Source: Basidiobolus meristosporus CBS 931.73 (lineage: Eukaryota > Basidiobolomycota > Basidiobolomycetes > Basidiobolales > Basidiobolaceae). Taken from it: 61,581 bases of DNA. Shown here in pieces: positions 29,547 through 61,581 of this stretch. The notes below the pieces were generated by a model. The model searched no databases. It was not told the origin of the DNA and was given only the letters and a program-made list of their open reading frames with translations. Position 1 is the first letter of the stretch, and each line of letters starts with the position of its first letter. The stretch is from positions 1 through 61,581 of the forward strand of contig MCFE01000534.1 in assembly GCA_002104905.1 (NCBI GenBank). The letters run 5' to 3'. Position numbers and translations under genes: made by a program.

Positions 29547-32500
29547 TTAGAGTCGTCTGTAGTTTAGCCTAACGTGTATAGAGCCTCTAATTACGTCCTG
29601 CAATTCCAGCTTGATGGAGTCCATCTCACGCTCCCCATAATATTCTAATAGCTGTAGACCTAATTTCGCTTGGCCCATGTAAGCTATCAACAGAATTCGT
29701 TAGTAATCAGTTACTACGTTGTGCCTTACTGTGTAGATAAAATACCTGGTTCGGTAAATTTCTCGTAGCTGTAAACTTGCAAATTCAAGACTTCGTCCAG
29801 GCGGGTGACTGAGAACACCAAGGATTGGTTCCATTTGGGGTTTGGCGTGTACTTGATGACTTTGGTTCTCAGCTTCTGTTTAGCGAGTTTCAATTCTACA
29901 TATGGACTAACAATCGTGTTGTTTTGATCCGTAGTAGCTAGATGCTCTCCTTCCAGTACAGTTACCTGCAGCGTTCCAATGGGATGGGCGGGGGGAGTTC
30001 CAGGGCCAAGGGCTTTCTTCTCTACATCCAAATAGTGGGATCTAGCCGCTTCCAGCTCATTCATCCACTTTCGCTTCGTAGAGACACTGGAGCATTTCAC
30101 AGTGATAACCTCCTCGATATGAACAATTTGGAAACTGGTATCATCAACTCCGGACTGGTTAAATCCTCTGGGTATTTCGCGAGCAACCATCTCATTCAAC
30201 GGGATAGGATCGCGATACAATGGGTATCGGTTTGAACCGACATTCTTCAGACTACTCCTTGGAAGTTGGGTAAGCAGAAGCAGATCATTGAACAAGAAAG
30301 CTTGAAGCTTTCTTCCGCTCTTCGCTTTTACCAAGATGCCCTCCATGATAAACTGACGTGCGCCTAGTAATCTAGTGTTTGCCATCAGGTCGAGCTTCTC
30401 TTCGGAGGTAGTGAAATCCACCAAGCCCGAGATTTCTTTGAGCTTTCCTTCGTCTTCTCGAATTTTAGCAATTTGATTGGCTTCGTGAAGTATTCCTTCG
30501 GCTTTCTCAAGAGCTTGCGAGATGTGCTCGTAGTCCTCGTGATCCTTACTGGTGTAATGAAGGATCTGTCGCAGTAGGAGTGGATATCTTGTAATACGCT
30601 GCATTGGCTCCAGTAAGAAGCTTGATAGATCGAGATTTCTACATTGTGGCGAACGCATACAGTCCTTCAAGAAGTTACAAATTCGCTGGTCTTCCCTCTT
30701 CTTCTGCAGTAGTTTGTAAGCATTCATTTGATTTCCACAATACGACAAGTATTGCCGAAACTCTTCAGAGTGATCCAGGAAAATGTCACCAATGCAATCT
30801 ATCATAAAGTGGCTATCGGTTTGACGCTCTTCCAGTTTGCTGAAGAAGTCGGTGTTGCAGAATAGCAACTCCTCAATATTTCCAAAGATGCTAACAAGCT
30901 CATTTTCGGAAACCATTGAACGCATAGGCTCATAAAACACACTTATGATAAGCTGGAGATCTCGGAGGTATGTCTGCTCAGTGGCAATCAATTCGAATAT
31001 GGATTCTTGCCGCTTGCGCTCTTCCGAATTGACAGAGTTTGCGTAATTAGAGCCAACACATTGGGCCCATCTGCGAGCACCAGGAGCTGATTCCAGAATA
31101 TTGGGGTTCGTGAGGGAGTTTAAACTTATTGATCGCCGTATTTGCCTGCTCTCCAAAAACCTGCTGGACGCACTTTCACTCCCCCTTCTTCTTCTCAACG
31201 TTTGATTACGCAAGATAGTGTCATTTCTTAATTCTTCACCCTCTATATCGGTGTCATCGTCCATAGACTCGGTGGCTGTGAGCTTGGGAGTCAGCTGTTT
31301 CGAGAGATTTGATGGACCCAAACCACTGAGTTTCTTACTAGGGCTACCCAAAGCGGAGGCTGAATGTGATCCTCGTCTACCAAGAACTCCAGGATAACTG
31401 CTAGCCGAGAGGGAGGACTTTCTCACTTGCTTCGGAGGAATCGAGGCTTTGCGAAGCTTTCTTTGAATGGGCAACTCCTCAACGTAGTTCGCTGGAACTA
31501 ATCCGGATTTACTCTCGTATTTTGCAAGCCACCAATCTGAATCCGATTTATCGACTACAATGATAACCATGCCTTCACTCAAGCTCATTTCATCCTCCCT
31601 CTGGGCGGTGTAATCGTATAATGCCTTCGCTTTCAGCACTTCCTCATCTGAAGCATCTGGATGACACAAAAATTGTCAACTGTTGTTCCACGAAATCATC
31701 CGCTAGGTCCAAGGCCCTTACCATCGTATTCTGCAACAATCTCTACGTAATTACTGGGGAAGTAGCCAACGTCGTTGGAGTCCTCTAGTCGTCCGTACCA
31801 CCAATCTCCCAACTTGTCAACTGTTTCATCGAGTATGATGATCGAGCCCTTAGAGAAGCTCAAGTCATTGTCGTTTCGTGCTTCGTAAGCATACAAGGCT
31901 CTAACTCGACTTGTGTCTGCAGGGGACAATGGAAAATTCGATATTAGCATTGTTCAATGAGTGTAAATTCTACTACATTACCTTGTACACCAAAATCTTC
32001 AACAGAAGATTGTATATCCGAGTCTCGCCTAGAAGAATAGTCCGAATCGTTGGCGGAGGCGGGACCAGAATGTGTAAGTGTGAATTCAGAGTCCGACTTT
32101 GGATTGACATAGAGATTGGAATTGCTTCGATTGCTGCCAAGCGAGGGATTTTCTGGGCTATTACGATCAGTATACAGCGGGATACCCCAAGGATCGTGAT
32201 CTTGGGAAGATTTTTCTACTTTGTGCCCGGCACTACCTGAAGTCGCTGCGGGCACTTCAGAATTAATAGGGGGTGATTTGGTGCTTCCAGAGCCCGATCC
32301 CAATCCCAGAATCTTCGCTTTCTCGCGCACCGACTTGGTTGAACTACGAAGCATCTGAAGCTCGGCCTCTCGTTCATTTGCCGCTGCCTTTACGCTATCA
32401 GCGAATCCCTTGCTACCCCTTGCAGAACCTAGAGTTGACTCTTGGTGAGACTCGGGGTCAACCTGAGCTGGCTTGACGGCCACGTCATGAGGAATTCCCT

Positions 32501-34643
32501 GCTTGGCAGCAGTCAAGCTCTCCGCAAATGTACGGACTTCATCGGTTAATTCGGCCTGATATTTCAACCACATTCTGTCCTCACAAGTATTCTTCTTGGA
32601 AAAAGCCAAACATTTCTGAACCTCGTTTTCGATGTTCTCGACGCCATCGCATATTTTCTGAATGAAGTTCAAACTGTGGCCCTTCTTTTCTTCGATCGCT
32701 TTGATCTCTGGGCTGGCACTGTTGATCGGATTCGGAGAGGTCTCGGCAGTTGATTTACCGGACAAAGCGTTCATTTTAGTGAATAAAATCTCGGCAGCGT
32801 GTTGCTTCGAGCGATCTCTTTCGTTTGACAGGTGGGGAGAAGCTATTTTCGAGAGATCTAATCTACTACCTGAGCGACTAGACTCCTGCATAGTGAACAG
32901 TTCTAGCTTTGACTGGGCCAGCCTATCATTCAACTCCAAAGCTAAACGTCTCTGTTGGTGTAAATCACCCAACACCCTGAAGATTTCCATTTCCAGCTGA
33001 ATTTTGCTATCCAGAAGATCGATCTTTTCCTGGCTGTCTGGTGCTTGCCCAGCCTCGATACGGTCAATCGTGGTCTGAAGATCCTTTATATCTTGTTGTA
33101 GCTGATCTATCTCATTCCGGGAGATTTCGCACGTGGTTTGACTTAATTTACTCAACTCAGCGCGCCTTTGTTGTATTGCTTTCTTTAGTGCATCCTGTCT
33201 AGCATGCTCTTCAGAAGTGAGCATAGAGGGCTCACCGCCACCGAGGGTTGGCTTGGGGGCCATGCTTGGGCCTGTGGGTAGTTGTTGATAGGAGGTATTT
33301 GCTGGAACCGCGTTGGGTGCTATTAAATTGAAGATGTGCTGCTTCTCTGGTATATTGCGAACCGCGAAAGGGGTTAGCTCCGGTGGAAGCATGGACGGTA
33401 ATTCTTTTCCAGCCAATTTCCCATAAATAAGGTGCATAGCAATGATGAATTCGCTTTCATCTAATTGACCTGATCCACGAGTATCAGCAAGATTCCTAGT
33501 CGCAATCAATCAGTCATAGGTGTCGGTGGATGTAAGAATACCCAGCAAGATTGCACAGCTTACCATATTTGCATCAAGATACTGGGTGAGAGTGCGGTTT
33601 GTAAGAAGAAATTCCTTGCCTGCTCCCCTGTAACGATTGACGAGATCCAGTTAGATTCTTGATGGCAAAGTCAACTATCACCATGGAAAAATGGCGTTAC
33701 CAGAAACATAGCCCAAGCGGGCAGTATCCAGAGCCTTAAACTTGGCCAAAAACTTGGCCTTTTCGTCAGGTGTCATCGTCCAAGAGACATTGGGGGAAAG
33801 AGACGAAAATACGGAATATTTATCTGGCAAATCAAAGGAAGCGTTTGAAATAAGCGGATGGGTAGGTTGACCCCCTCCGCTCCAATCGATGGTGCCGCTT
33901 TTGCTAGAATTTGTTGATAATGTTGAGAACGACGGTGAGCTGGATAGCATGCCAGGCGAACCATAATTTCCGGTGAAGGAGAAATCTAGGTTATAGTTAG
34001 GAGCGCTTGGCTTGATAGGGACGCTGTGAGATTTAGGCATATGCTTGCATTTCTCAATTGCGTCCTGCAACTCCCGTCGCAATTGTTCAGGAAGGCTGCT
34101 GGGCACCTCCAAACCCTTTAGCTTCAAGGTTATCAAATACATTCCAGTAGAAAACTCTGGGTAATTAATGGTATTTCCAGCCGAGGTATTCACCAGTCGC
34201 CTGTTTTTAAACCCATTAATTTCTTGTAAGCACCTTGCCGCTGAAACTCCATTCTTACCAGATGTGGGCCAGGACTTCTGGGCGCAGATTCGACCGAGAA
34301 AAAATTTCTTGTGCGGCATCGGCTACCAGTCGGGACATATAACCGTTAGAAAAACCCCCAAGCAAACTGCTGGTAGGAGCCCCGTACCTGATATTAGACG
34401 CCCATCAGGATGACAACGTTGGGCAAAGAGACCTTCGTACTTCAAGTGATCAGATGGCGAGATAAAAGACACACGAGCTGTCAATGCGTTAGTTTGATGG
34501 AGGTTAAAAAGCAAGAGAAACGAAAACCAACCTTGTCTAAACGTTTGAACACTGCCAAGGCCGCTTTCTGACACCGACGGCGATCTTCCCAAGTACTCTT
34601 GAGACTGATTGAAGGCGCCGAACGAACTGAGACTGTTATACAT
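29547..34643 (-). CDS. Intersectin-like endocytic RhoGEF (EH-EH-coiled coil-SH3-SH3-DH-PH-C2)
   Basis: Scaffold and Rho/Cdc42 exchange factor linking endocytosis to actin, about 1,400-1,500 aa in at least nine exons. Order from the N-terminus: first EH domain, split by introns (SPSDHLKYEGLFAQRCHPDG, then INYPEFSTGMYLITL); second EH (MTPDEKAKFLAKFKALDT, then DTRGSGQLDESEFIIAMHLI, with a canonical EF-hand-like loop); coiled coil (ISRNEIDQLQQDIKDLQTTI); Ser-rich linker; SH3-1 (VRALYAYEARNDNDLSF, GYFPSNYVE); SH3-2 (AKALYDYTAQREDEMSL, GLVPANYVEEL); DH (IATEQTYLRDLQLI to FLLEPMQRITRYPLLL); PH (GILVKAKSGRKLQAFLFND); C2 (LQVTVLEGEHLATTD). The C2 domain finishes in exon 29683-29547. This is the architecture of intersectin-L and Cryptococcus Cin1. 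Baker's yeast has no single equivalent; Pan1 and End3 share the EH part. The first EH exon boundaries are approximate. Confidence 0.9.
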
Positions 34644-48773: not shown

Positions 48774-53973
<5,200 letters not shown>

Positions 53974-54153
53974 GGTGAGGGAAAGCCGCCTTATTAATGA
54001 AATCTCTTTCTAAATACCAATCCAAAATACCATACAATAAAGCTGCCAGCTAAGAGATTTAAAATCTAGTATGTTAATATTCTCAGATGGTTTACTCCAA
54101 TCTGATATTGGAATGAATAAAGTATAGCTTATCAGGTAATGACATATGGTTTT
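53974..54153. other. 3' flank of the ABC transporter
   Basis: Unique AT-rich sequence up to the truncated LTR. This is the last unique chromosomal DNA before the repetitive end. Confidence 0.5.
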
Positions 54154-54204
54154 TGTTGTAAGAGTTTTGGAGATATTGGAAGTGACTGGGTGAAGAAGTA
54201 GATT
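54154..54204 (-). mobile_element. LTR-A stub cut off by telomere repeat
   Basis: The first 51 bp of LTR-A (TGTTGTAAGAG...AGTAGATT) are followed directly by TAGGGTTAGGG. In complete copies AGTAGATT continues as ATGTGG. The LTR is therefore truncated exactly where telomeric DNA starts. Confidence 0.85.
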
Positions 54205-54248
54205 TAGGGTTAGGGAGGGAAAGTCACCAAGTTGGTAAAATCTTTAGG
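54205..54248 (-). mobile_element. Tail-only unit T1 at telomere repeats
   Basis: TTAGGGTTAGGG-type sequence (54203-54214) and AGGGAAAG lead into the stem-loop CACCAAGTTGGT and AAATCTTT. Only about 40 bp of the shared tail remain before the next unit begins. Confidence 0.75.
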
Positions 54249-54435
54249 GGAGGGATGGTCACCAAGTGGTGAAATCTTTATTTACCTATGACAAGTATCT
54301 AAAGAATACAGGTTAATCTGAAGTTATTCCTAGAAAGCTAGGTCTCAGAGATATCTTCCTGGTAAGCCAGGTCTGAGAGTTGAGAAGTTGAGTGGTACTA
54401 TATTTCCTAAGTAGCTAGGTCTGACAGAGTTTTCC
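54249..54435 (-). mobile_element. SINE-like unit T2, 5'-truncated
   Basis: Tail stem-loop TCACCAAGTGGTGA at 54259-54272, then AAATCTTTATTTA and the hairpin-array body (CCTAGAAAGCTAGG, CCTGGTAAGCCAGG, CCTAAGTAGCTAGG). It matches the full unit at 58211-58743 but lacks the tRNA-like head. Confidence 0.8.
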
Positions 54436-54568
54436 TTAGGGTTAGGGGTCCAAGTTCTTCTATTGAATCTGATTAAGTATAGTAATACCATTTCAACTTG
54501 ATTCAAGTTGAATAATGCAAATTGTACAAAGTAGTTACATCCATAGTAAGGTAAAGGTGCAAGTACTG
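54436..54568 (-). mobile_element. Unit T3 of unknown type beginning with telomere repeats
   Basis: TTAGGGTTAGGGG (54438-54450) is followed by about 120 bp that match no other unit and lack the usual stem-loop. It contains a perfect 10-bp inverted repeat, TTCAACTTGA-T-TCAAGTTGAA, at 54492-54512. Strand is assumed from the telomere orientation. Confidence 0.45.
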
Positions 54569-54705
54569 CTAAGGGTCAGGGGGGGAGACAGTCACCAACA
54601 GGTGAAATCTTTATTTCAGTTGAAACAAAGAAGCCAGCGCTACTGTTGTAGCTTTGATACAAGAGTGTGTAGCAGAGGGGATTCTGTAGGTAAGTTAATA
54701 AGAAG
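54569..54705 (-). mobile_element. ORF2-LINE tail fragment T4
   Basis: AAGGGTCAGGGGGGGAGACAG and stem-loop TCACCAACAGGTGA (54592-54605), then about 100 bp matching the end of ORF2 at 58770-58870 (AAGCCAGCGCTACTGTTGTAG). It is interrupted at 54706 by LTR-C. Confidence 0.85.
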
Positions 54706-54963
54706 TGTTGTGCATCAACATTTAAAACATATCCTATTTTATTCCTTCAGAAAATCTAGTACCCTAACTAATTTTCCCTAACCCAAACATACCTAATCCC
54801 AGTTATAGTTTATTTTATCACTTCTCAGAATCTATTTTTAGCTGTCACACCTGATCAATTTTCATGTGGTCATTATGTCCTCAACTGATCTGTTAAGTCT
54901 TTCCAATTGATTAGTCATCTGAGATCTATCCAACCACTTAGCAGTTGCCAAGACATCAGCTGA
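54706..54963 (+). mobile_element. LTR-C fragment, truncated at a telomere-linked junction
   Basis: About 258 bp matching 46969-47226, starting TGTTGTGCATCAACA. It ends at ACATCAGCTGA, where TTTAGGGGAGGG and the next tail begin; the remaining ~440 bp of the LTR are missing. It interrupts LINE sequence between AGAAG and the expected TGATGATAG. Confidence 0.8.
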
Positions 54964-55762
54964 TTTAGGGGAGGGAAAGTCACCAAGGTAGGTGAAATCT
55001 TTATTTGATTTCAGACAAGTCTAACTACAAATAAAGAAGCCAGCTGGGAGTAGAAGATTCCCAAAGTAAACACTAGGTTGAATATGAATAAATCTAAGCT
55101 AAAGTTAAGGCAGTATCCCAGAGTACACTGGAGTTCAGGTTCATGGGGGAGTGAAGTAGGTAAGCTTGAGAGATATAATAATCTTTCAGGAAGTGGGTAA
55201 CAGCAGGTGAAGGGGAGTTTCTGATAAGTGAAGTGAATCTTGAGAGCAGAGATTCCTCTAATGAGAAGGTCTTGTAAACTGGAGAATCAGGAAACTCTTT
55301 AAAGGCATGGTCAGTAGGTTCCCAGTAAAACTGGTCAGAGACACTTTGAGAGAATTGTTTAGCAATACTTTTGTCAAGTACTGCCTCCAGAGTGTGATGG
55401 TTGATAAATCTCATGTTAACAATCTTGGATAAATTGTAACCTTGTTGCTTGAGATACATGCTATGCTCAGATATAGGAATAAATTCCACATTGGCAAAGT
55501 AGCAGACAGCCCAGTCAGTAGCAGGAGGCAAATGAGAAGTGGCAGGAAACTATCTTTTAGTCTTGGGAGGAGCAACAGGATGTTTTGAGGGAGCAGAAAC
55601 AGGCTTTTTGACAGCTTCAGAGTAAGAAGAGTGAGCAGGAGCAGATGATTCTTCGGTAGTCTTTTTGGCAGGAAGAGCTGGCACAGAGACAATAGATTCT
55701 TGCAGATCAGAGAAGGCAGAAAATAGCTTTTAAACTTGTTTCTTCAATAGAGCATTTTCAGC
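54964..55762 (-). mobile_element. ORF1-only unit T5, 5'-truncated
   Basis: TTTAGGGGAGGG, stem-loop TCACC(AAGGTA)GGTGA at 54980-54995 and a ~95-bp 3' UTR (AAATAAAGAAGCCAGC) precede an ORF1 reading on the minus strand from about 55760 to the stop at 55094. No ORF2 sequence lies between the ORF1 stop and the tail. The 5' end is cut at TTTTCAGC by TTAGGGTTAGGGG. Confidence 0.82.
55094..55740 (-). pseudogene. LINE ORF1 protein, lineage 1, broken and 5'-incomplete
   Basis: The intact part (55094-55531) contains TDWAVCYFANVEF, ISEHSMYLKQQGYNLSKIVN and FTSLIRNSPSPAVTHFLKDY. It aligns along its length with the 266-aa ORF1 at 57310-58110 but at only about half identity by eye. Further upstream in the same frame are a Pro/Ala/Ser-rich segment (VSAPSKHPVAPPKTK) and one stop codon near 55547. 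The N-terminal coiled-coil part is lost by truncation. Likely an RNA-binding chaperone of a non-LTR element; I see no CCHC zinc knuckle. Confidence 0.7.
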
Positions 55763-56052
55763 TTAGGGTTAGGGGAGGGAAAGTCACCAAGTTGGTGAAA
55801 CCTTTATTTGAGTCAATAACTAATCTAATTACAAATAAAGAAGTCAATTAAGAGGTCTAGAACCTCTCTAGTAAGTAATCTAATTTATGTTTTGTTTCAT
55901 CTCTAATGTTTGTTTCAATAAAGTAAAGCTCATCAGGGGTAAATATAAAAATCAAGGGTTTTTGGGGAGTTCAAATTGCAGATGTTTCTGATCAATATAA
56001 TCTAAGATTGGAACCCAGCCTGGGATTAGGTGTAGTAGGAAAGGTGTGTGGA
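55763..56052 (-). mobile_element. Unit T6 with the shared tail and an unknown body
   Basis: TTAGGGTTAGGGG and the longest stem-loop seen, TCACCAAGTTGGTGA (55784-55798), then AAACCTTTATTTG and ACAAATAAAGAAG, which is the common tail. The remaining ~230 bp match neither ORF1, ORF2 nor the SINE-like body. It may be the 3' UTR of another LINE lineage or another non-coding passenger. Confidence 0.65.
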
Positions 56053-56922
56053 CTTAGGGGGGGGGAGACAGTCACCAACAGGTGAAATCTTTATTTCAGT
56101 TGAAACAAAGAAGCCAGCGCTACTGTTGTAGCTTTGATACAAGAGTGTGTAGCCAAGGGGAATTTGTAGGTAAGTTTACAAGAAGTGATGATAGTTCTTC
56201 AGTGCTCAAGACACTGTTCAGTGGCAAGGGGGGTAGCAAGAGAGGTAAGAATGACTTGTGAACAACATTAATGAGGGGAATGTGATAAGGATTGATATTC
56301 ATCATAAAGGAAGTGTGCTGCTGCAGATATTGCTGCCAAAGGTCTGTCAAGTACTTCAGGTAGGCCAGCTTGGGTTTTTCTGACTGCAGAATATAGTGAG
56401 CAAACTTCTTGACTTCAGGATCTCCAAGTATAGTTCTCCAGCAGGAGCCAGGTGTTGTGTGGTGTGTTCTCTTCCAGGCCTTAATCAGTGGGTTGTTGCA
56501 GTTGTGAAGTCTGAGGTATAATCTGGTTCTAAGGTAGAGAAGTCTGATCTTATAGGGCATAAACCCAAAAGCACCAAGAATAGCATGTCTGTAGGGGCAT
56601 TCAGGCAAATGAGGCACCAAGGAGGTAATGCACCATACTGCAAACTTGTCAAGCTTAGTGCAGTCTCTAGAAGTAAGAGAGAGAAGTGGTAAGCCAAATT
56701 CCAGGACAGGGAAGACAAACTGCTTGAGTAGAAGGAGGCAGCTGGGAGCTGAAGTTGTAGGAGGAGTAGCAGCCAGTAGCTTGTGGAGTGCCTGTCTTGC
56801 CAGGATAATTCTCTTCTTCAGGTGTGCTCCAGAGTCTAGTCCAGTAGGAAGGAAAGGAAAGCCAAGATATGTTGCAGAAACCTGAGCAGGTAGAGTGGAG
56901 TTCTCCAGGCTGATGGGAGAGC
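56053..56922 (-). mobile_element. ORF2-LINE unit T7, 5'-truncated
   Basis: TTAGGGGGGGGGAGACAG, stem-loop at 56072-56085, then about 840 bp nearly identical to 58762-59610, including an uninterrupted C-terminal ORF2 part (166 aa frame 56120-56620 and beyond). It stops at GATGGGAGAGCC, where TTAGGGTTAGGGG follows. Only scattered substitutions separate it from the longer copy, so both are recent. Confidence 0.88.
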
Positions 56923-56970
56923 CTTAGGGTTAGGGGGGAGACAGTCACCAACAGGTGAAATCTTTATCTC
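56923..56970 (-). mobile_element. Tail-only ORF2-type unit T8
   Basis: A 48-bp unit: TTAGGGTTAGGGGGGAGACAG, stem-loop TCACCAACAGGTGA (56945-56958), AAATCTTTATCTC, and then immediately the next TTAGGGTTAGGG. Confidence 0.85.
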
Positions 56971-57162
56971 TTAGGGTTAGGGGGGAGGAAAGTCACCAAG
57001 TGGTGAAATCTTTATTTACTTATGACAAGTATCTAAAGAAGCCAAGTTAATTTGAAGTTATTCCTAGAAAGCTAGGTCTGAGAGATATCTTCCTGGTAAG
57101 CCAGGTCTGAGAGTTGAGAAGCTGAGTGGTACTATATTACCTAGTTAGCTAGGTCTGAGAGA
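56971..57162 (-). mobile_element. SINE-like unit T9, 5'-truncated
   Basis: TTAGGGTTAGGGGGG, stem-loop TCACCAAGTGGTGA (56993-57006), then the hairpin-array body up to AGGTCTGAGAGA, matching 58211-58403. The tRNA-like head is missing. Confidence 0.85.
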
Positions 57163-57215
57163 GGGTTAGGGTTAGGGGAGGGAAAGTCACCAAGTTGGTG
57201 AAATCTTTATTTGAG
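57163..57215 (-). mobile_element. Tail-only unit T10
   Basis: GGTTAGGGTTAGGGGAGGG and stem-loop TCACCAAGTTGGTGA (57187-57201), AAATCTTTATTTGAG, then the next unit begins at TAGGGGGGATG. Confidence 0.8.
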
Positions 57216-58210
57216 TAGGGGGGATGATCATCACCAAAGGGTGAAATCTTTATTTAAATAATAAATAAAGAAGCCAAGTTTGAATATGAATATCTGAGAT
57301 GCAGGAAGCCTACAAGATAAACTTGGACTTTGCTGCATCCCAAATATCCTCAATATCAAAGTCTAGAGGAGAGTGTAGCAAGAGTGCTTGTTCATTGTAG
57401 TGTTTCTTGAGGAAGTTTGTGACTTGAAGGGAAGGAGAGTTTTTCAACAAGCTGGTAAATCTTTTGAGGAGTTCTTTTTCCAGAGAGAATGGCACAAAGA
57501 GTGGAATGTCCAAGTGATGTCTGAATATATGCTCTGAGAGCTCCCAATCCAGCATATTTTTGACTTCTTCTGTAAAATCTTCAACAATATCTTTGTCAAG
57601 AATAACTTCCAAGAGATCCCTAGCAATGTACTGAATGTTAATAATCTTAGGCATATGAATACCTAGGTCCTTGAGGTAGTTTCTTTGTTCTGATATTGGG
57701 AGATATCCTGCATTTCTGAAATAGCAAACAGCCCAGTTGGCAGTAGGAGGAGTATCAGGGCTGACAGGGAATCTTCTTCTGGCTTTAGAGTGCACTGGCT
57801 TAGGAGACTGTCTTGATGGAAGGGCAGCTGGTCTTGGATGAGCTTGAAGTGCTTGAGCGTAGGTCTGAGTATAAGTAGTAGAAGTTCCTGGTTGCCAAGA
57901 ATTTTCAGATTGACTGGATGAAGAGCTAATTGAGGAGTTGCAAGGTAAGGAAGAAGCTGAAAGAGAAGTGGAGAGGGCTGGGTGAAGTTCAGAAAGAGTT
58001 TTGAAAAGAATTTGGATCTGAGATTTCAACATTGAGTTTTCAGCTTCAAGAAGAGAAACTCTTTGTTCAAGGTAAGAAGTCTGTAGAGAGTGAAAGTTGG
58101 GTAAAGACATGGAAGTAATAAATAAGAAGAATGGAGTAGTTGGGGTGGGAGGGTGGGAAAATAGGTAAGAAGAAAAGAGAGGAAAGATCTGAAATTGAAA
58201 ATCTCAGAAT
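57216..58210 (-). mobile_element. ORF1-only unit T11, apparently near full length
   Basis: TAGGGGGGATGATCA, stem-loop TCACC(AAAG)GGTGA at 57231-57244, AAATAAAGAAGCC, an ~65-bp 3' UTR, the complete ORF1 (58110-57310) and about 100 bp of A/G-rich (sense T/C-rich) 5' UTR. It ends against TTAGGGTTAGGGG at 58211. No ORF2 sequence is present. Confidence 0.85.
57310..58110 (-). CDS. LINE ORF1 protein, lineage 2, intact
   Basis: 266 aa, ATG at 58110, no internal stop. N-terminal ~45 residues form a likely coiled coil (YLEQRVSLLEAENSMLKSQ), as in many LINE ORF1 trimers. A Ser/Pro/Gln-rich linker with a basic cluster (SKARRRFP) follows. The conserved C-terminal domain starts at TANWAVCYFRNAGYLPISEQ and includes MPKIINIQYIARDLLEVILD and LLKRFTSLLKNSPSLQVTNF. 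I see no zinc knuckle or RRM motif, so RNA binding is inferred from position and class only. The gene is followed within ~70 bp by the shared stem-loop tail. Confidence 0.8.
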   Translation of the reverse strand: MSLPNFHSLQTSYLEQRVSLLEAENSMLKSQIQILFKTLSELHPALSTSLSASSLPCNSSISSSSSQSENSWQPGTSTTYTQTYAQALQAHPRPAALPSRQSPKPVHSKARRRFPVSPDTPPTANWAVCYFRNAGYLPISEQRNYLKDLGIHMPKIINIQYIARDLLEVILDKDIVEDFTEEVKNMLDWELSEHIFRHHLDIPLFVPFSLEKELLKRFTSLLKNSPSLQVTNFLKKHYNEQALLLHSPLDFDIEDIWDAAKSKFIL

Positions 58211-58298
58211 TTAGGGTTAGGGGGGAGGAAAGTCACCAAGTGGTGAAATCTTTATTTACTTATGACAAGTATCTAAAGAAGCCAAGTTAATCTGAAGT

Positions 58299-58446
58299 TA
58301 TTCCTAGAAAGCTAGGTCTGAGAGATATGTTCCTGGTAAGCCAGGTCTGAGAGTTGAGAGGCTGAGTGGTACTATATTTCCTAGTTAGCTAGGTCTGAGA
58401 GAGGTTTCCTGGAAAGCCAGGCCTGAGAAGTGAGAATCTGAATATA
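58299..58446 (-). repeat. Array of four small hairpins in the SINE-like body
   Basis: On the plus strand: CCTAGaaagCTAGG, CCTGGtaagCCAGG, CCTAGttagCTAGG and CCTGGaaagCCAGG, each followed by a YCTGAGA motif. Stems alternate A-T and G-C at the fourth position with both sides changed together. Copies T2 and T9 carry three of them. Confidence 0.8.
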
Positions 58447-58669
58447 TCTGAGCTAAGTTATACTAGTTTGCGGTAGCTGAATTGTGGCCAGAATGGCCAG
58501 TAGACTGGGGGAACTGAGAGGAATTTCTGGGCAATCACTGGCCAAATTTACTAGGCAAATCTGGCCAATTAGCATTTCAAGGATTTCAGCCAATCAGAGC
58601 CTTTACTTTGCCCAATGGTTGATCAAGCCATCTCCCAATGAGCACACATCAATTTATTAATCAAATTTT

Positions 58670-58735
58670 TGCTGGATCCAGGATTTGAACCCACAACCAT
58701 GGGTATGGAAGGGTTAGGGATAACCACAAGGCTAA
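58670..58735 (-). ncRNA. tRNA-related Pol III promoter region (SINE head)
   Basis: A- and B-box-like sequences are spaced ~33 bp apart, as in Pol III genes. The T stem around TTCAAAT has only two canonical pairs plus wobbles, so I do not call a functional tRNA or its anticodon. Confidence 0.6.
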
Positions 58736-58743
58736 GTGTTCTT

Positions 58744-61581
58744 GGTTAGGGGGGGAGACAGTCACCGACAGGTGAAATCTTTATTTCAGTTGAAACAAAG
58801 AAGCCAGCGCTACTGTTGTAGCTTTGATACAAGAGTGTGTAGCTGAGGGGAATTTGTAGGTAAGTTAATAAGAAGTGATGATAGTTCTTCAGTGCTCAAG
58901 ACACTGTTCAGTGGGAAGGGGGGTAGCAAGAGAGGTAAGAATGACTTGTGAACAACATTAATGAGGGGAATGTGATAAGGATTGATATTCATCATAAAGG
59001 GAGTGTGCTGCTGCAGATATTGCTGCCAAAGGTCTGTCAAGTACTTCAGGTAGGCCAGCTTGGGTTTTTCTGACTGCAGAATATAGTGAGCAAACTTCTT
59101 GACTTCAGGATCTCCAAGTATAGTTCTCCAGCAGGAGCCAGGTGTTGTGTGGTGTGTTCTCTTCCAGGCCTTAATCAGTGGGTTGTTGCAGTTGTGAAGT
59201 CTGAGGTATAATCTGGTTCTAGGGTAGAGAAGTCTGATCTTATAGGGCATAAACCCAAAAGCACCAAGAATAGCATGTCTGTAGGGGCATTCAGGCAAAT
59301 GAGGCACTAAGGAGGTAATGCACCATACTGCAAACTTGTCAAGCTTAGTGCAGTCTCTAGAAGTAAGAGAGAGAAGTGGTAAGCCAAATTCCAGGACAGG
59401 GAAGACAAACTGCTTGAGTAGAAGGAGGCAGCTGGGAGCTGAAGTTGTAGGAGGAGTAACAGCCAGTAGCTTGTGGAGTGCCTGTCTTGCCAGGATAATT
59501 CGCTTCTTCAGGTGTGCTCCAGAGTCTAGTCCAGTAGGAAGGAAAGGAAAGCCAAGATATGTAGCAGAAACCTGAGCAGGTAGAGTGGAGTTCTCCAAGT
59601 TGATGGGAGAGCCCAAAGGTACTGTCTTTGCAATGGAAAGCTGGAGATTATTCTTCTGCAGATACTGGTGGATGGTCTGGGAGTCTTGTTGCACATTGGA
59701 GGAGGATATTCTGATGTCATCAGCAAAGAGAGTAACCAGGCAGTCAGCTGAGAGTCTTGGGAAGTCATTCAGGAAGATGGCAAACAGTATAGGACCAAGT
59801 ACAGAGCCTTGAACCACTCCATTAGGAACTGAGAACACAGCTGATTGCTCACTTGGGTGCAGAATTCTTGCTTGTGGATCCAGAAACAGAGACCTGACAA
59901 GGAGGGTGAGAGAGGTACTGGAGAAGCATTGCAACTTGGACCAAAGCAGATTTCTGTCAACTGAATCAAAGGCCTTAGTAATATCAAACAGAACAGAGGG
60001 ATACTTGCACTGGAGAGAGTGATCTTGGCTAAGTATGACTGCATATTCCAAGGAGAGGCCAGGAACAAAGTCAAACTGTGCAGGATGAAACTTGAGAGAG
60101 TCAGAGTAGAGCTCCTGAGCAAGCAGAAGCTCAAACACCTTTCTGCAGGTGGGCAGCAGAGATATTGGCCTGTAGGAGCTAGGATCCAGGTGCTTTCCTT
60201 TACCCTTGTACAGTGGCAGAACATTTGCAAAGGACCATTCCTCAGGAGTAGAAAGCTGGGCTGAGCATTGCTGAAACAGTGGAAGCAGAAGTGCAGACAT
60301 GGCCTTGGTACTAGTCTTCAGAAGCTCATAGGAGATTGTGTCCACACCTGGAGCAGTAGAGTTGGGAAGCCTCTTGAGCACATTATGGATTCTCCTTTGA
60401 TCAAGTGCAAGTGGGATGGGCAGAGTCTGAAGTCAGGATGAAAGCCAGGAGTTGAGTACTGCTTTGTAGAGAAGAAGATGTTAGCCAGCTGTTCTGTTGA
60501 AGGTAACTTCCTGGAAGAGGGCCTCATTGCCCTGTAGAGTCTTGATACTGTTCTTGTTATAGAGTTGGAAGATTGCAGAGGCAAAGAACTCATAATATGA
60601 TCCCAGAGCTGAGTATGCAGAGTGTGGTGAATTGCCTTGGAGTGGTGTATTGCTGTCAGGAGGAGTTTCTTTGTTTTTGGGTTAGGGAAGCTCAGGTAGC
60701 TTTGTTGCAGGGCTGAAACAATGGATTCCCATTTTCTTGAGGTAACAGCAGTAGTCTTGCATGGCAGTGAGAGGGAGGCAGACACCAGAATCAGATGCTT
60801 CACAAAGAGCCAGGCAAAGTTGAGATCATCTGGCAGAGAAAGTAGCAAACTGGCAAGCTTCAAGTAGTTCCCAAAGTCTTTCTTCTGATTCTTGGTAGCT
60901 TTGTGGGTGAGCACAGTAAGTTTTGGCAGCTTCTTCTTCACAACTGGTTGCATAGAAAGGGACCAGGCTGGGTGGTCAGAGGCTCTCAAGGATCCTAGCT
61001 CAGCTCCAGAGAATTGCTTAACTTCATTCACAAAGTAGAGGGCAGCAGCAGAAGGGCAGATCCAGTCAACACATCTTTTCTCAGATTGAGCACCTAGTGC
61101 TAGCAGGTGGCTTTCTCTCAGGAAGTTCAGTAGGAATGTAGACCTTGGCTTCATTCTTGCAGTCAGAATAGTCTTGTTCTCAGGATGGGGAATGTTGAGA
61201 TCTCCAAGCAAGATAACAGGTGTTGATATAGATTGTTGGTATTGCTGAACCTTCTGGCATATAACTTGCACTTCCTGAAGGGCTAGACTTGGAGGCAGAT
61301 AGCAGAGCACCAGACTGATAGTTGGCAACTGGAGAGCAGCACAGTAAGGGGAGTAAAGAGGAACACAGAGCTGAGGAATATTGATGGTAGAAGAGATGAA
61401 GCAGATAGAGGAGGTATTCTTTGTTCTAGGAGTAGAAAAGCAATATAGATTAGTCAAAAGTATAGAGGGTAGCTGGACATCAATCAAACACAGGAGGGAA
61501 AATCTTGAAAGAAGTCTCTCTAGAGTTGGTCTTGATGGCTGTATGCTGTTGCAGTTAAGCAACAGAACTTCAGGTAGTCAG
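58744..61581 (-). mobile_element. ORF2-LINE unit T13, extends beyond the window
   Basis: GGTTAGGGGGGGAGACAG, stem-loop TCACC(GACA)GGTGA (58762-58775), AAATAAAGATTT in sense, a short 3' UTR and ORF2 with endonuclease and RT. It is the longest copy; the 5' end and any ORF1 linkage lie outside. A frameshift near 60420-60435 breaks ORF2. Confidence 0.9.
58810..61579 (-). pseudogene. LINE ORF2: AP endonuclease plus reverse transcriptase, one frameshift
   Basis: The 5' frame (from about 61578 to the shift) encodes an APE-type endonuclease: LLLNCNSI start, VILLGDLNIPHP and RASDHPAWSL near the end. The 3' frame encodes the RT: LPNSTAPGVDTISYELLK, YKGKGKHLDPSSYRPISLL, FDITKAFDSVD, QGSVLGPILFAIFLNDF and the catalytic FADDIRISS. 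A helical C-terminal region follows to the stop at 58810. I find neither RNase H nor a C-terminal CCHC. In the RT frame a TGA occurs near 60430 just upstream of QRRIHNVLKRLPN, while the EN frame runs on past it; a single small indel near 60420-60435 explains both. Apart from that the protein is intact. Confidence 0.88.

What the first reader, a model, noticed from the sequence alone, without database searches (positions are those of the whole stretch)
54205..61581. Chromosome-end stack of same-orientation non-LTR units punctuated by TTAGGG
About 13 units lie head-to-tail on the minus strand. Junctions read ...TTAGGGTTAGGGG then a shared tail (54203, 54438, 55763, 56923, 56971, 57163, 58211; degenerate at 54249, 54569, 54964, 56053, 57216, 58744). 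On the plus strand the cDNA strand of each element starts directly after TTAGGG, as expected if a G-strand 3' end primed reverse transcription, and the G-strand points right, toward the presumed chromosome end. Several units are 5'-truncated and capped by one to two telomere repeats before the next unit. This resembles end-attachment of telomeric retroelements (HeT-A/TART, SART/TRAS, MoTeR, Athena), but with three different unit types. Telomere targeting is inference.
Basis: partly seen in the sequence, partly recalled or inferred. Interest (0 to 1): 0.92.

Follow-up and report, generated by a model that had tools for sequence, protein, structure and literature searches.

The report
Fungal chromosome-end retrotransposon array with telomerase
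The end of this fungal contig is a head-to-tail stack of five related kinds of telomere-seeking retrotransposon, found at contig ends across the genome and often capped by ordinary telomere repeats, which makes it a good natural case for asking how jumping genes and telomerase share chromosome ends.

Summary
Window 54.2-61.6 kb holds 12 units with a shared 3' tail plus one tailless segment, all minus-strand, separated by short TTAGGG tracts. The window is a whole contig of an 89-Mb fungal assembly (probably Basidiobolus) with a telomerase domain. In four overlapping listings of 100 tail hits, 254 of 255 hits on contigs over 40 kb lie within about 22 kb of the contig end the G-strand points to. 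Eight TTAGGG caps read are about 120-230 nt.

Five families, not three: T4 (ORF1, UGA-CUA, APE-type endonuclease plus RT), T1 (second RT lineage), T2 and T5 (ORF1 only), T3 (short, noncoding). Their RNAs share a 3' end, so T4/T1 probably move the others.

Interstitial tracts are at most 12 nt in 89 of 93 junctions, far shorter than caps. Rare longer tracts sit nearer the tips, and two of 6-7 repeats exist. This fits insertion into telomere repeats followed by loss of arrays beyond fragile long tracts, the rule published for MoTeRs. Those carry a restriction-like endonuclease; this system is APE-type. New variant of a known kind.

The parts
53970..54203 (-). decayed older unit, proximal to the reported array
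   Evidence: TTAGGGTGAGGGAAAG plus a degenerate tail at 53970
54204..54242 (-). severely 5'-truncated T1-like unit preceded by TTAGGGTTAGGG
54243..54435 (-). T3 unit (noncoding), 5'-truncated
   Evidence: tail at 54259; about 178 nt of T3; 93.8% to its nearest copies elsewhere
54436..54568 (-). segment after TTAGGGTTAGGG without the shared tail; unassigned
54569..54963 (-). T4 unit: 119 nt of T4, then about 269 nt of unassigned sequence
54964..55762 (-). T2 unit (ORF1-only family), 5'-truncated
   Evidence: tail at 54980; 785 nt of T2
55763..56052 (-). T1 unit, 5'-truncated
   Evidence: tail at 55784; 272 nt of T1
56053..56922 (-). T4 unit, 5'-truncated (852 nt)
   Evidence: tail at 56072
56923..56969 (-). 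T4 micro-unit truncated just after its tail
   Evidence: tail at 56945
56970..57164 (-). T3 unit, 5'-truncated
   Evidence: tail at 56993
57165..57214 (-). T1 micro-unit
   Evidence: tail at 57187
57215..58209 (-). T5 unit; ORF1-only
   Evidence: tail at 57228; open frame 57310-58110
57310..58110 (-). T5 ORF1, 266 aa: predicted N-terminal helix (coiled coil), disordered linker, RRM-like fold, C-terminal helices
58210..58743 (-). full-length T3 unit (about 0.53 kb)
   Evidence: tail at 58233; same 5' end as other T3 copies
58744..61581 (-). T4 unit running off the contig end; ORF2 open frames 58810-60381 (RT) and 60318-61562 (endonuclease) in different frames; in-frame TGA CTA at 61575-61580

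Best explanation
The region is the terminal part of a chromosome-end array made by a group of telomere-specific, APE-type non-LTR retrotransposons in a telomerase-positive fungus. T4 (and the related T1) supplies endonuclease and reverse transcriptase. T2 and T5 supply only ORF1 RNA-binding proteins and T3 supplies nothing. All five RNAs end in a similar hairpin-rich stretch followed by CCCC(UAACCC), which the T4/T1 RT is inferred to recognise. Reverse transcription starts on the TTAGGG strand, so every unit lies with its 3' end toward the centromere. The units are often 5'-truncated, and the new end is capped by telomerase. Only insertions with about two or fewer repeats beneath them persist, because longer interstitial tracts are lost, most likely by breakage and re-healing as published for MoTeRs. 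Shown: terminal location, orientation, families, shared tail, tract lengths, caps, presence of a telomerase domain. Inferred: trans-mobilisation, nick versus free-end priming, the breakage filter, and RNA binding by ORF1.
For: Terminality: of listed tail hits on contigs >40 kb, 80 of 81 (one search list), 83 of 83 (one search list), 50 of 50 T3 and 41 of 41 T4 lie within about 22 kb of the end that the G-strand points to (lists overlap, most contig lengths are interpolated, errors up to about 1.3 kb). A telomerase RNA-binding domain match is present. T4 encodes RT (8.8e-25) with APE motifs; T2 and T5 show ORF1 only, with pN/pS 0.29-0.58 between the open copies. The consensus of 6 tails from the five families keeps two hairpins. 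Tracts are 12 nt or less in 89 of 93 junctions (one locus counted twice). Genome-wide there are 348 exact G4 tails, 41 with at least two repeats and 10 with at least three. Junctions with three or more repeats lie nearer the contig end: median 1.8 kb (10) against 4.8 kb (58) and 4.4 kb (27), one-sided p 0.007, two-sided 0.014. Two junctions with 6-7 repeats were read. Proximal units are more diverged (51 units in 11 arrays, within-array permutation p 0.005). Of 79 units matched to a reference, none is seen to be interrupted by another array unit and then to resume.
Against: One exact tail hit is internal (C558, 98.7 kb from the end it points to). The endonuclease scores below Pfam's curated cut-offs (PF14529 21.0 against 27.4 bits) and its catalytic glutamate position reads Asp, so activity is unproven. 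The position test rests on 10 junctions and the one-repeat list is cut at 100 places. Not all contig ends are chromosome ends. Two of 11 arrays run against the age gradient and one is flat. Of the 79 units, 13 end in more than 60 nt of unmatched sequence. No microhomology at 5'-truncated junctions beyond chance (24 of 43 against 20.5 +/- 3.2). The tail alignment has almost no covariation, and T5 alone folds differently at the second hairpin. The pN/pS values come from 3 copies each, chosen for being open. No RNA data.
Confidence: 0.7

Rival explanations
1. End-healing attachment: the RT adds elements only to ends that have lost their telomere, and the one or two TTAGGG repeats at each junction are copied from a CCCUAACCCUAA 3' end of the element RNA, much as HeT-A is added to broken ends.
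For: Sharp fall after 12 nt with peaks at exactly 6 and 12 nt; several junctions read TTAGGGTTAGGG directly after a truncated unit without microhomology; micro-units of about 25-50 nt.
Against: Junctions with 3 repeats (10) and 6-7 repeats (L088, L089) exist, and the longer tracts lie nearer the tips, which an RNA-encoded tract does not predict. The caps, presumably made by telomerase, also begin with TTAGGG or GGG.
Confidence: 0.2
2. Most array growth is by recombination (break-induced replication or unequal exchange between ends) and transposition is rare.
For: Some junctions recur: two neighbouring T3 units of L040 share one breakpoint and tract, and L075 has two 120-bp T4 units cut at nearly the same base. 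BIR is described for MoTeR arrays (PMC7367193, passages).
Against: Of 43 junctions that directly abut a 5'-truncated unit, nearly all differ in breakpoint or tract; the two L040 junctions share both, and L046/L013 is one locus listed twice. In the five-unit T3 run of L074 the tracts differ from junction to junction.
Confidence: 0.08
3. Assembly artefact or an internal heterochromatic cluster mis-joined at contig ends.
For: Assemblies break in repeats, and there is a strong right-end bias (632 against 71 hits).
Against: (TTAGGG)6 shows the same orientation bias (6568 against 68; reversed-pattern controls 0 and 11), and caps adjoin array units in several contigs. The bias is therefore most likely an orientation convention of the assembler.
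Confidence: 0.02

Closest known systems
MoTeR1/MoTeR2 of Magnaporthe oryzae
   Same: Head-to-tail arrays in TTAGGG telomeres of a telomerase-bearing fungus, autonomous plus non-autonomous partner sharing the 3' end, telomeres attached to truncated copies, short interstitial tracts stable (PMC7367193, passages seen)
   Different: MoTeR1 is likened to SLACS/CRE1 with a restriction-enzyme-like endonuclease. MoTeR2's own region has no obvious function, whereas T2/T5 here carry ORF1. MoTeR tracts range from half a repeat to more than 20; here rarely more than 2. Five families here.
FoTeRs of Fusarium oxysporum
   Same: Telomere-only non-LTR elements with telomeric repeats at the 3' junction (PMC12857005, abstract and sections 16, 18, 19 read)
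   Different: CRE clade with REL endonuclease; 3.0-8.0 TAACCC copies at the 3' ends of intact and truncated elements in its Table 3; no ORF1-only partners reported in the parts read
SART/TRAS of Bombyx (recalled)
   Same: APE-type endonuclease, insertion in telomeric repeats, telomerase-type repeats present
   Different: Poly(A)-ended R1-clade elements as recalled; here 0 of 94 junctions have a run of five or more T before the tract. Clade not tested.
HeT-A/TART/TAHRE of Drosophila (recalled; PMC5537684 seen only in a search listing)
   Same: Ends built by several elements in one orientation, one of which carries only the gag-like protein while another supplies the RT
   Different: Drosophila lacks telomerase and TTAGGG; this genome has a telomerase domain and TTAGGG caps

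Membership tests
MoTeR/FoTeR (CRE-clade telomeric elements) | restriction-enzyme-like endonuclease with CX2C...H...C motif after the RT | tested here: not met
   No CX2C after the RT in the 922-aa ORF2 (sequence, by inspection); instead an N-terminal APE-type region with GDxN and DH
MoTeR/FoTeR (CRE-clade telomeric elements) | confined to telomeres, one orientation, head to tail | tested here: met
   254 of 255 listed hits on contigs >40 kb, one internal exception; array order
APE-type non-LTR retrotransposons (LINE superfamily) | APE-like endonuclease upstream of a LINE-type RT | tested here: met
   RVT_1 2e-26; PF14529 3e-4 but below its cut-off; motif alignment; best PDB match LINE-1 ORF2 protein 5e-14
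APE-type non-LTR retrotransposons (LINE superfamily) | ORF1 with coiled coil and RRM (L1 type) | tested here: inconclusive
HeT-A/TART | replaces telomerase | tested here: not met
   Telomerase RNA-binding domain match and TTAGGG caps
SART/TRAS | R1 clade by RT phylogeny | not tested
   No reference sequences fetched
SINE (T3) | tRNA-, 7SL- or 5S-derived pol III head | tested here: inconclusive
   ARAGORN none, no Rfam tRNA match; B-box-like GGTTCAAATCC in 7 of 7 heads, but the heads were picked by their sequence

The most novel reading that the evidence does not exclude
A telomerase-positive fungus keeps a five-member consortium of telomere retrotransposons with Drosophila-like division of labour (ORF1-only elements and RT donors sharing one 3' tag), maintained because the arrays serve as a back-up or buffer for chromosome ends.
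Probability: 0.15. Interest if true: 0.85.

Novelty: new variant of a known kind. Interest (0 to 1): 0.62.

Why it matters
The fungal telomeric non-LTR elements in the papers I read (MoTeR, FoTeR, Cnl1) belong to the CRE clade; an APE-type system would be a separate origin of telomere targeting in fungi. ORF1-only units that seem to be conserved beside RT-bearing units resemble the HeT-A/TART division of labour, but with telomerase still present. That makes it possible to ask which features need telomerase loss. Hundreds of junctions give a natural data set for the rule that about two TTAGGG repeats are tolerated inside a chromosome and longer tracts are not.

Tried and rejected
Considered and dropped: tRNA-derived SINE origin of T3 (no ARAGORN or Rfam support; only a B-box-like motif). 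Microhomology seeding at 5'-truncated junctions (24 of 43 against 20.5 +/- 3.2 expected: no excess). The idea that junction repeats are wholly encoded by the element RNA was my first preference and was lowered. The RhoGEF search named no Basidiobolus among its 84 hits; the genus rests on the three ORF1 hits, all in B. ranarum, and the species is open. No L1 ORF1p row appeared in the rows shown by Foldseek or VIA-align. RT phylogeny was not built for want of named references. Full-length T1 was not found. One search was a wrong-frame translation and was discarded. One search timed out and was redone smaller. The position test was first run with 50 one-repeat places and two interpolated lengths later found off, then with 54, and last with all 58 listed on contigs >40 kb; the result held each time. 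Papers: PMC12857005 abstract and three sections; PMC7367193 passages and the start of its abstract; PMC7466969 passages; others only in listings. My searches listed no description of telomeric elements in Basidiobolus; they cover only the held open library.
Full report
What was checked. The window is the whole of contig C796 in an assembly of 89.0 Mb and 1311 contigs. Its last 7.8 kb were read directly. Exact TTAGGGTTAGGG lies at seven places, all in the array, and with one mismatch the window holds 12 matches against 0.23 in shuffled sequence. A tail of the form TCACC(loop)GGTGAAATCTTTAT follows nearly every tract on the plus strand and was not found on the minus strand of the window. Counting the degenerate tail after 54204 there are 12 tailed units, one tailless segment (54436) and an older decayed tail at 53970.

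Families. Sorting by tail and body gives five families. T4: longest copy read 3.96 kb (other copies continue slightly further), with an ORF1 of up to 379 open codons, then an in-frame TGA CTA in 5 of 5 copies examined, then a 922-codon frame with endonuclease and RT in intact copies; the window copy has its ORF2 in two frames. T1: a second RT lineage, about 68% identical to T4 in DNA over 504 nt; no full-length copy was found. T2 and T5: about 1 kb, ORF1 only. T3: about 0.53 kb, no frame of 90 codons in the 7 T3 units scanned. ORF1 proteins of T5 and T2 are 48% identical, and each is 32% identical to T4 ORF1 over about 200 codons. Among copies with a frame of at least 200 codons (3 of 4 T5 units, 3 of 9 T2 units) pN/pS is 0.29-0.58, and 0.20-0.43 among four T4 ORF2 copies. 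This suggests purifying selection, but only open copies were compared and significance was not tested. A 269-aa ORF1-only relative is annotated in Basidiobolus ranarum, 60% identical over 99%, so such units are probably old and kept. This also makes Basidiobolus the likely genus. The first-stage count of three types is therefore too low.

Shared 3' end. The consensus of six tails from the five families (two from T5) has two hairpins followed by a C-rich run; most of the tails then show CCCTAA or part of it. The second stem (UCACC/GGUGA) is complementary in 6 of 6 without variation; the first keeps its lower pairs in 6 of 6 and loses up to two sequences at its upper pairs; one pair covaries, and the covariation term is slightly unfavourable (+0.22). 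Folded singly, T1-T4 form both hairpins, while T5 pairs the second stretch differently. The argument is therefore conservation of the same arrangement in otherwise different sequences, not covariation. No junction of 94 has a run of five or more T before the tract, so no poly(A) tail seems to have been copied.

Location. T1/T2-type junctions: 632 forward and 71 reverse (up to 3 mismatches). T1 tails: 202 and 25. T3: 449 and 35. T4: 814 and 85. Patterns with mismatches may cross-match families. Each listing shows only the first 100 places, and the listings share units; places on contigs of 40 kb or less (19, 17, 50 and 59) were set aside as uninformative. Of the rest, 80 of 81, 83 of 83, 50 of 50 and 41 of 41 lie within about 22 kb of the end that the G-strand points to. 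Most contig lengths were interpolated from length rank, with errors up to about 1.3 kb. The exception, C558 at 98.7 kb, contains decayed and fresh units in one orientation (L073) and may be an internalised relic or a mis-join. The right-end bias is shared by (TTAGGG)6 (6568 against 68) and so is most simply an assembler convention. Of ten right ends (ten of the twenty rank anchors) seven carry array families and three of these end in 200-233 nt of TTAGGG. Of twenty left ends (only 120 bases each) one carries a T4 end, in the expected reverse orientation, and none a cap. Of nine right ends fetched, mostly chosen because they had hits, five have caps of about 119-223 nt; the L037 cap does not directly follow a recognised unit. 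The window itself ends without a cap. A telomerase RNA-binding domain is encoded on C880 in two pieces, one with an internal stop as read without introns.

Junctions. Of 94 junctions, 93 could be parsed (locus C142 contributes one junction twice). The TTAGGG-periodic tract is 12 nt or less in 89, with peaks at 6 nt (23) and 12 nt (17), and a maximum of 28 nt. Many of these junctions came from loci selected for TTAGGGG. The genome-wide exact counts avoid that: 348 G4-type tails, of which 195 follow TTA, 41 have at least two repeats and 10 at least three (the patterns differ slightly at their 3' side). A six-repeat version with up to 2 mismatches has two hits, both T3; reading them showed truncated T4, six or seven repeats, then T3 (L088, L089). 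The caps read are therefore some ten times longer than nearly all interstitial tracts.

Growth. Within arrays, proximal units are more diverged from their nearest relatives than distal ones (51 units in 11 arrays, permutation p 0.005); L074 and L075 run the other way and L040 is flat, and units without a usable match were left out. Among 79 units matched to a reference none is seen to be interrupted by another array unit and then to resume; 13 of the 79 end in more than 60 nt of unmatched sequence. The one interrupted T2 copy carries a different 349-bp insert flanked by about 5 repeated bases. In that sample 8 of 19 T3 and 5 of 18 T2 copies reach the reference end, and T4 copies stop at many places, some only because the fetched stretch ends. 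At 43 junctions a 5'-truncated unit directly abuts the tract. So units are added outward and are often truncated at the 5' side.

Mechanism. Three readings give short tracts: addition only to nearly bare ends, repeats encoded by the RNA, or insertion into the telomere followed by loss of arrays with long interstitial tracts. The third predicts that longer tracts survive mainly near the tip. The ten junctions with three or more repeats have a median distance of 1.8 kb against 4.8 kb (58 one-repeat places, the internal C558 hit included) and 4.4 kb (27 two-repeat places): one-sided p 0.007, two-sided 0.014. Earlier runs with fewer places gave 0.008 and 0.009, and 0.011 (median) after adding 0.8 kb noise. 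The two junctions with six and seven repeats lie about 0.8 and 0.25 kb from their contig ends. [quoted passage not shown] I therefore prefer insertion or priming at telomeric repeats plus a breakage filter, at about 0.7, with end-healing by RNA-encoded repeats as the main rival. Gradual shrinkage of long tracts with age would give the same gradient. Whether priming uses a nick or a free 3' end cannot be told from sequence.

Comparison. It works like MoTeR and FoTeR but is not a member: their defining REL endonuclease is absent. It shares the APE-type enzyme with SART/TRAS and a division of labour with HeT-A/TART (both recalled), but clade membership was not tested. Literature searches listed no description of telomeric elements in Basidiobolus; only the held open papers were searchable. 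Verdict: a real, well-supported, new variant of a known kind.

Noticed in passing
window 61575-61580 (minus); L047, L038, L035: T4 ORF1 and ORF2 lie in one frame separated by a single TGA followed by CTA in 5 of 5 copies, with no Met at the start of ORF2; suggests stop read-through or re-initiation (TGA-CTA as a read-through context is recalled).
   Followed up: partly
L073 1-2901 (contig C558 near 98.7 kb): Only clearly internal exact junction in the list of 100; decayed and fresh units in one orientation, possible internalised relic or mis-joined contig.
   Followed up: partly
L038 4331-4679; also L032 and L042: A different mobile element has landed in array units; the 349-bp insert in a T2 copy is flanked by about 5 duplicated bases, and longer related inserts sit in a T4 copy (L032) and after a T3 tail (L042).
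   Followed up: no
L019, T2 unit from 1516: 5' region of T2 carries about three 101-bp tandem repeats.
   Followed up: no
L075 145-504: Two 120-bp T4 units cut at nearly the same base stand in tandem, suggesting local duplication or repeated stopping of the RT.
   Followed up: no
window 49958-53585: ABC transporter reading frames lie directly proximal to the array.
   Followed up: no
window 29726-33509: RhoGEF/SH3/PH/C2 protein (intersectin-like) and an EH-domain frame; the top named relatives are Glomeromycotina and chytrids at about 38-47% identity.
   Followed up: partly
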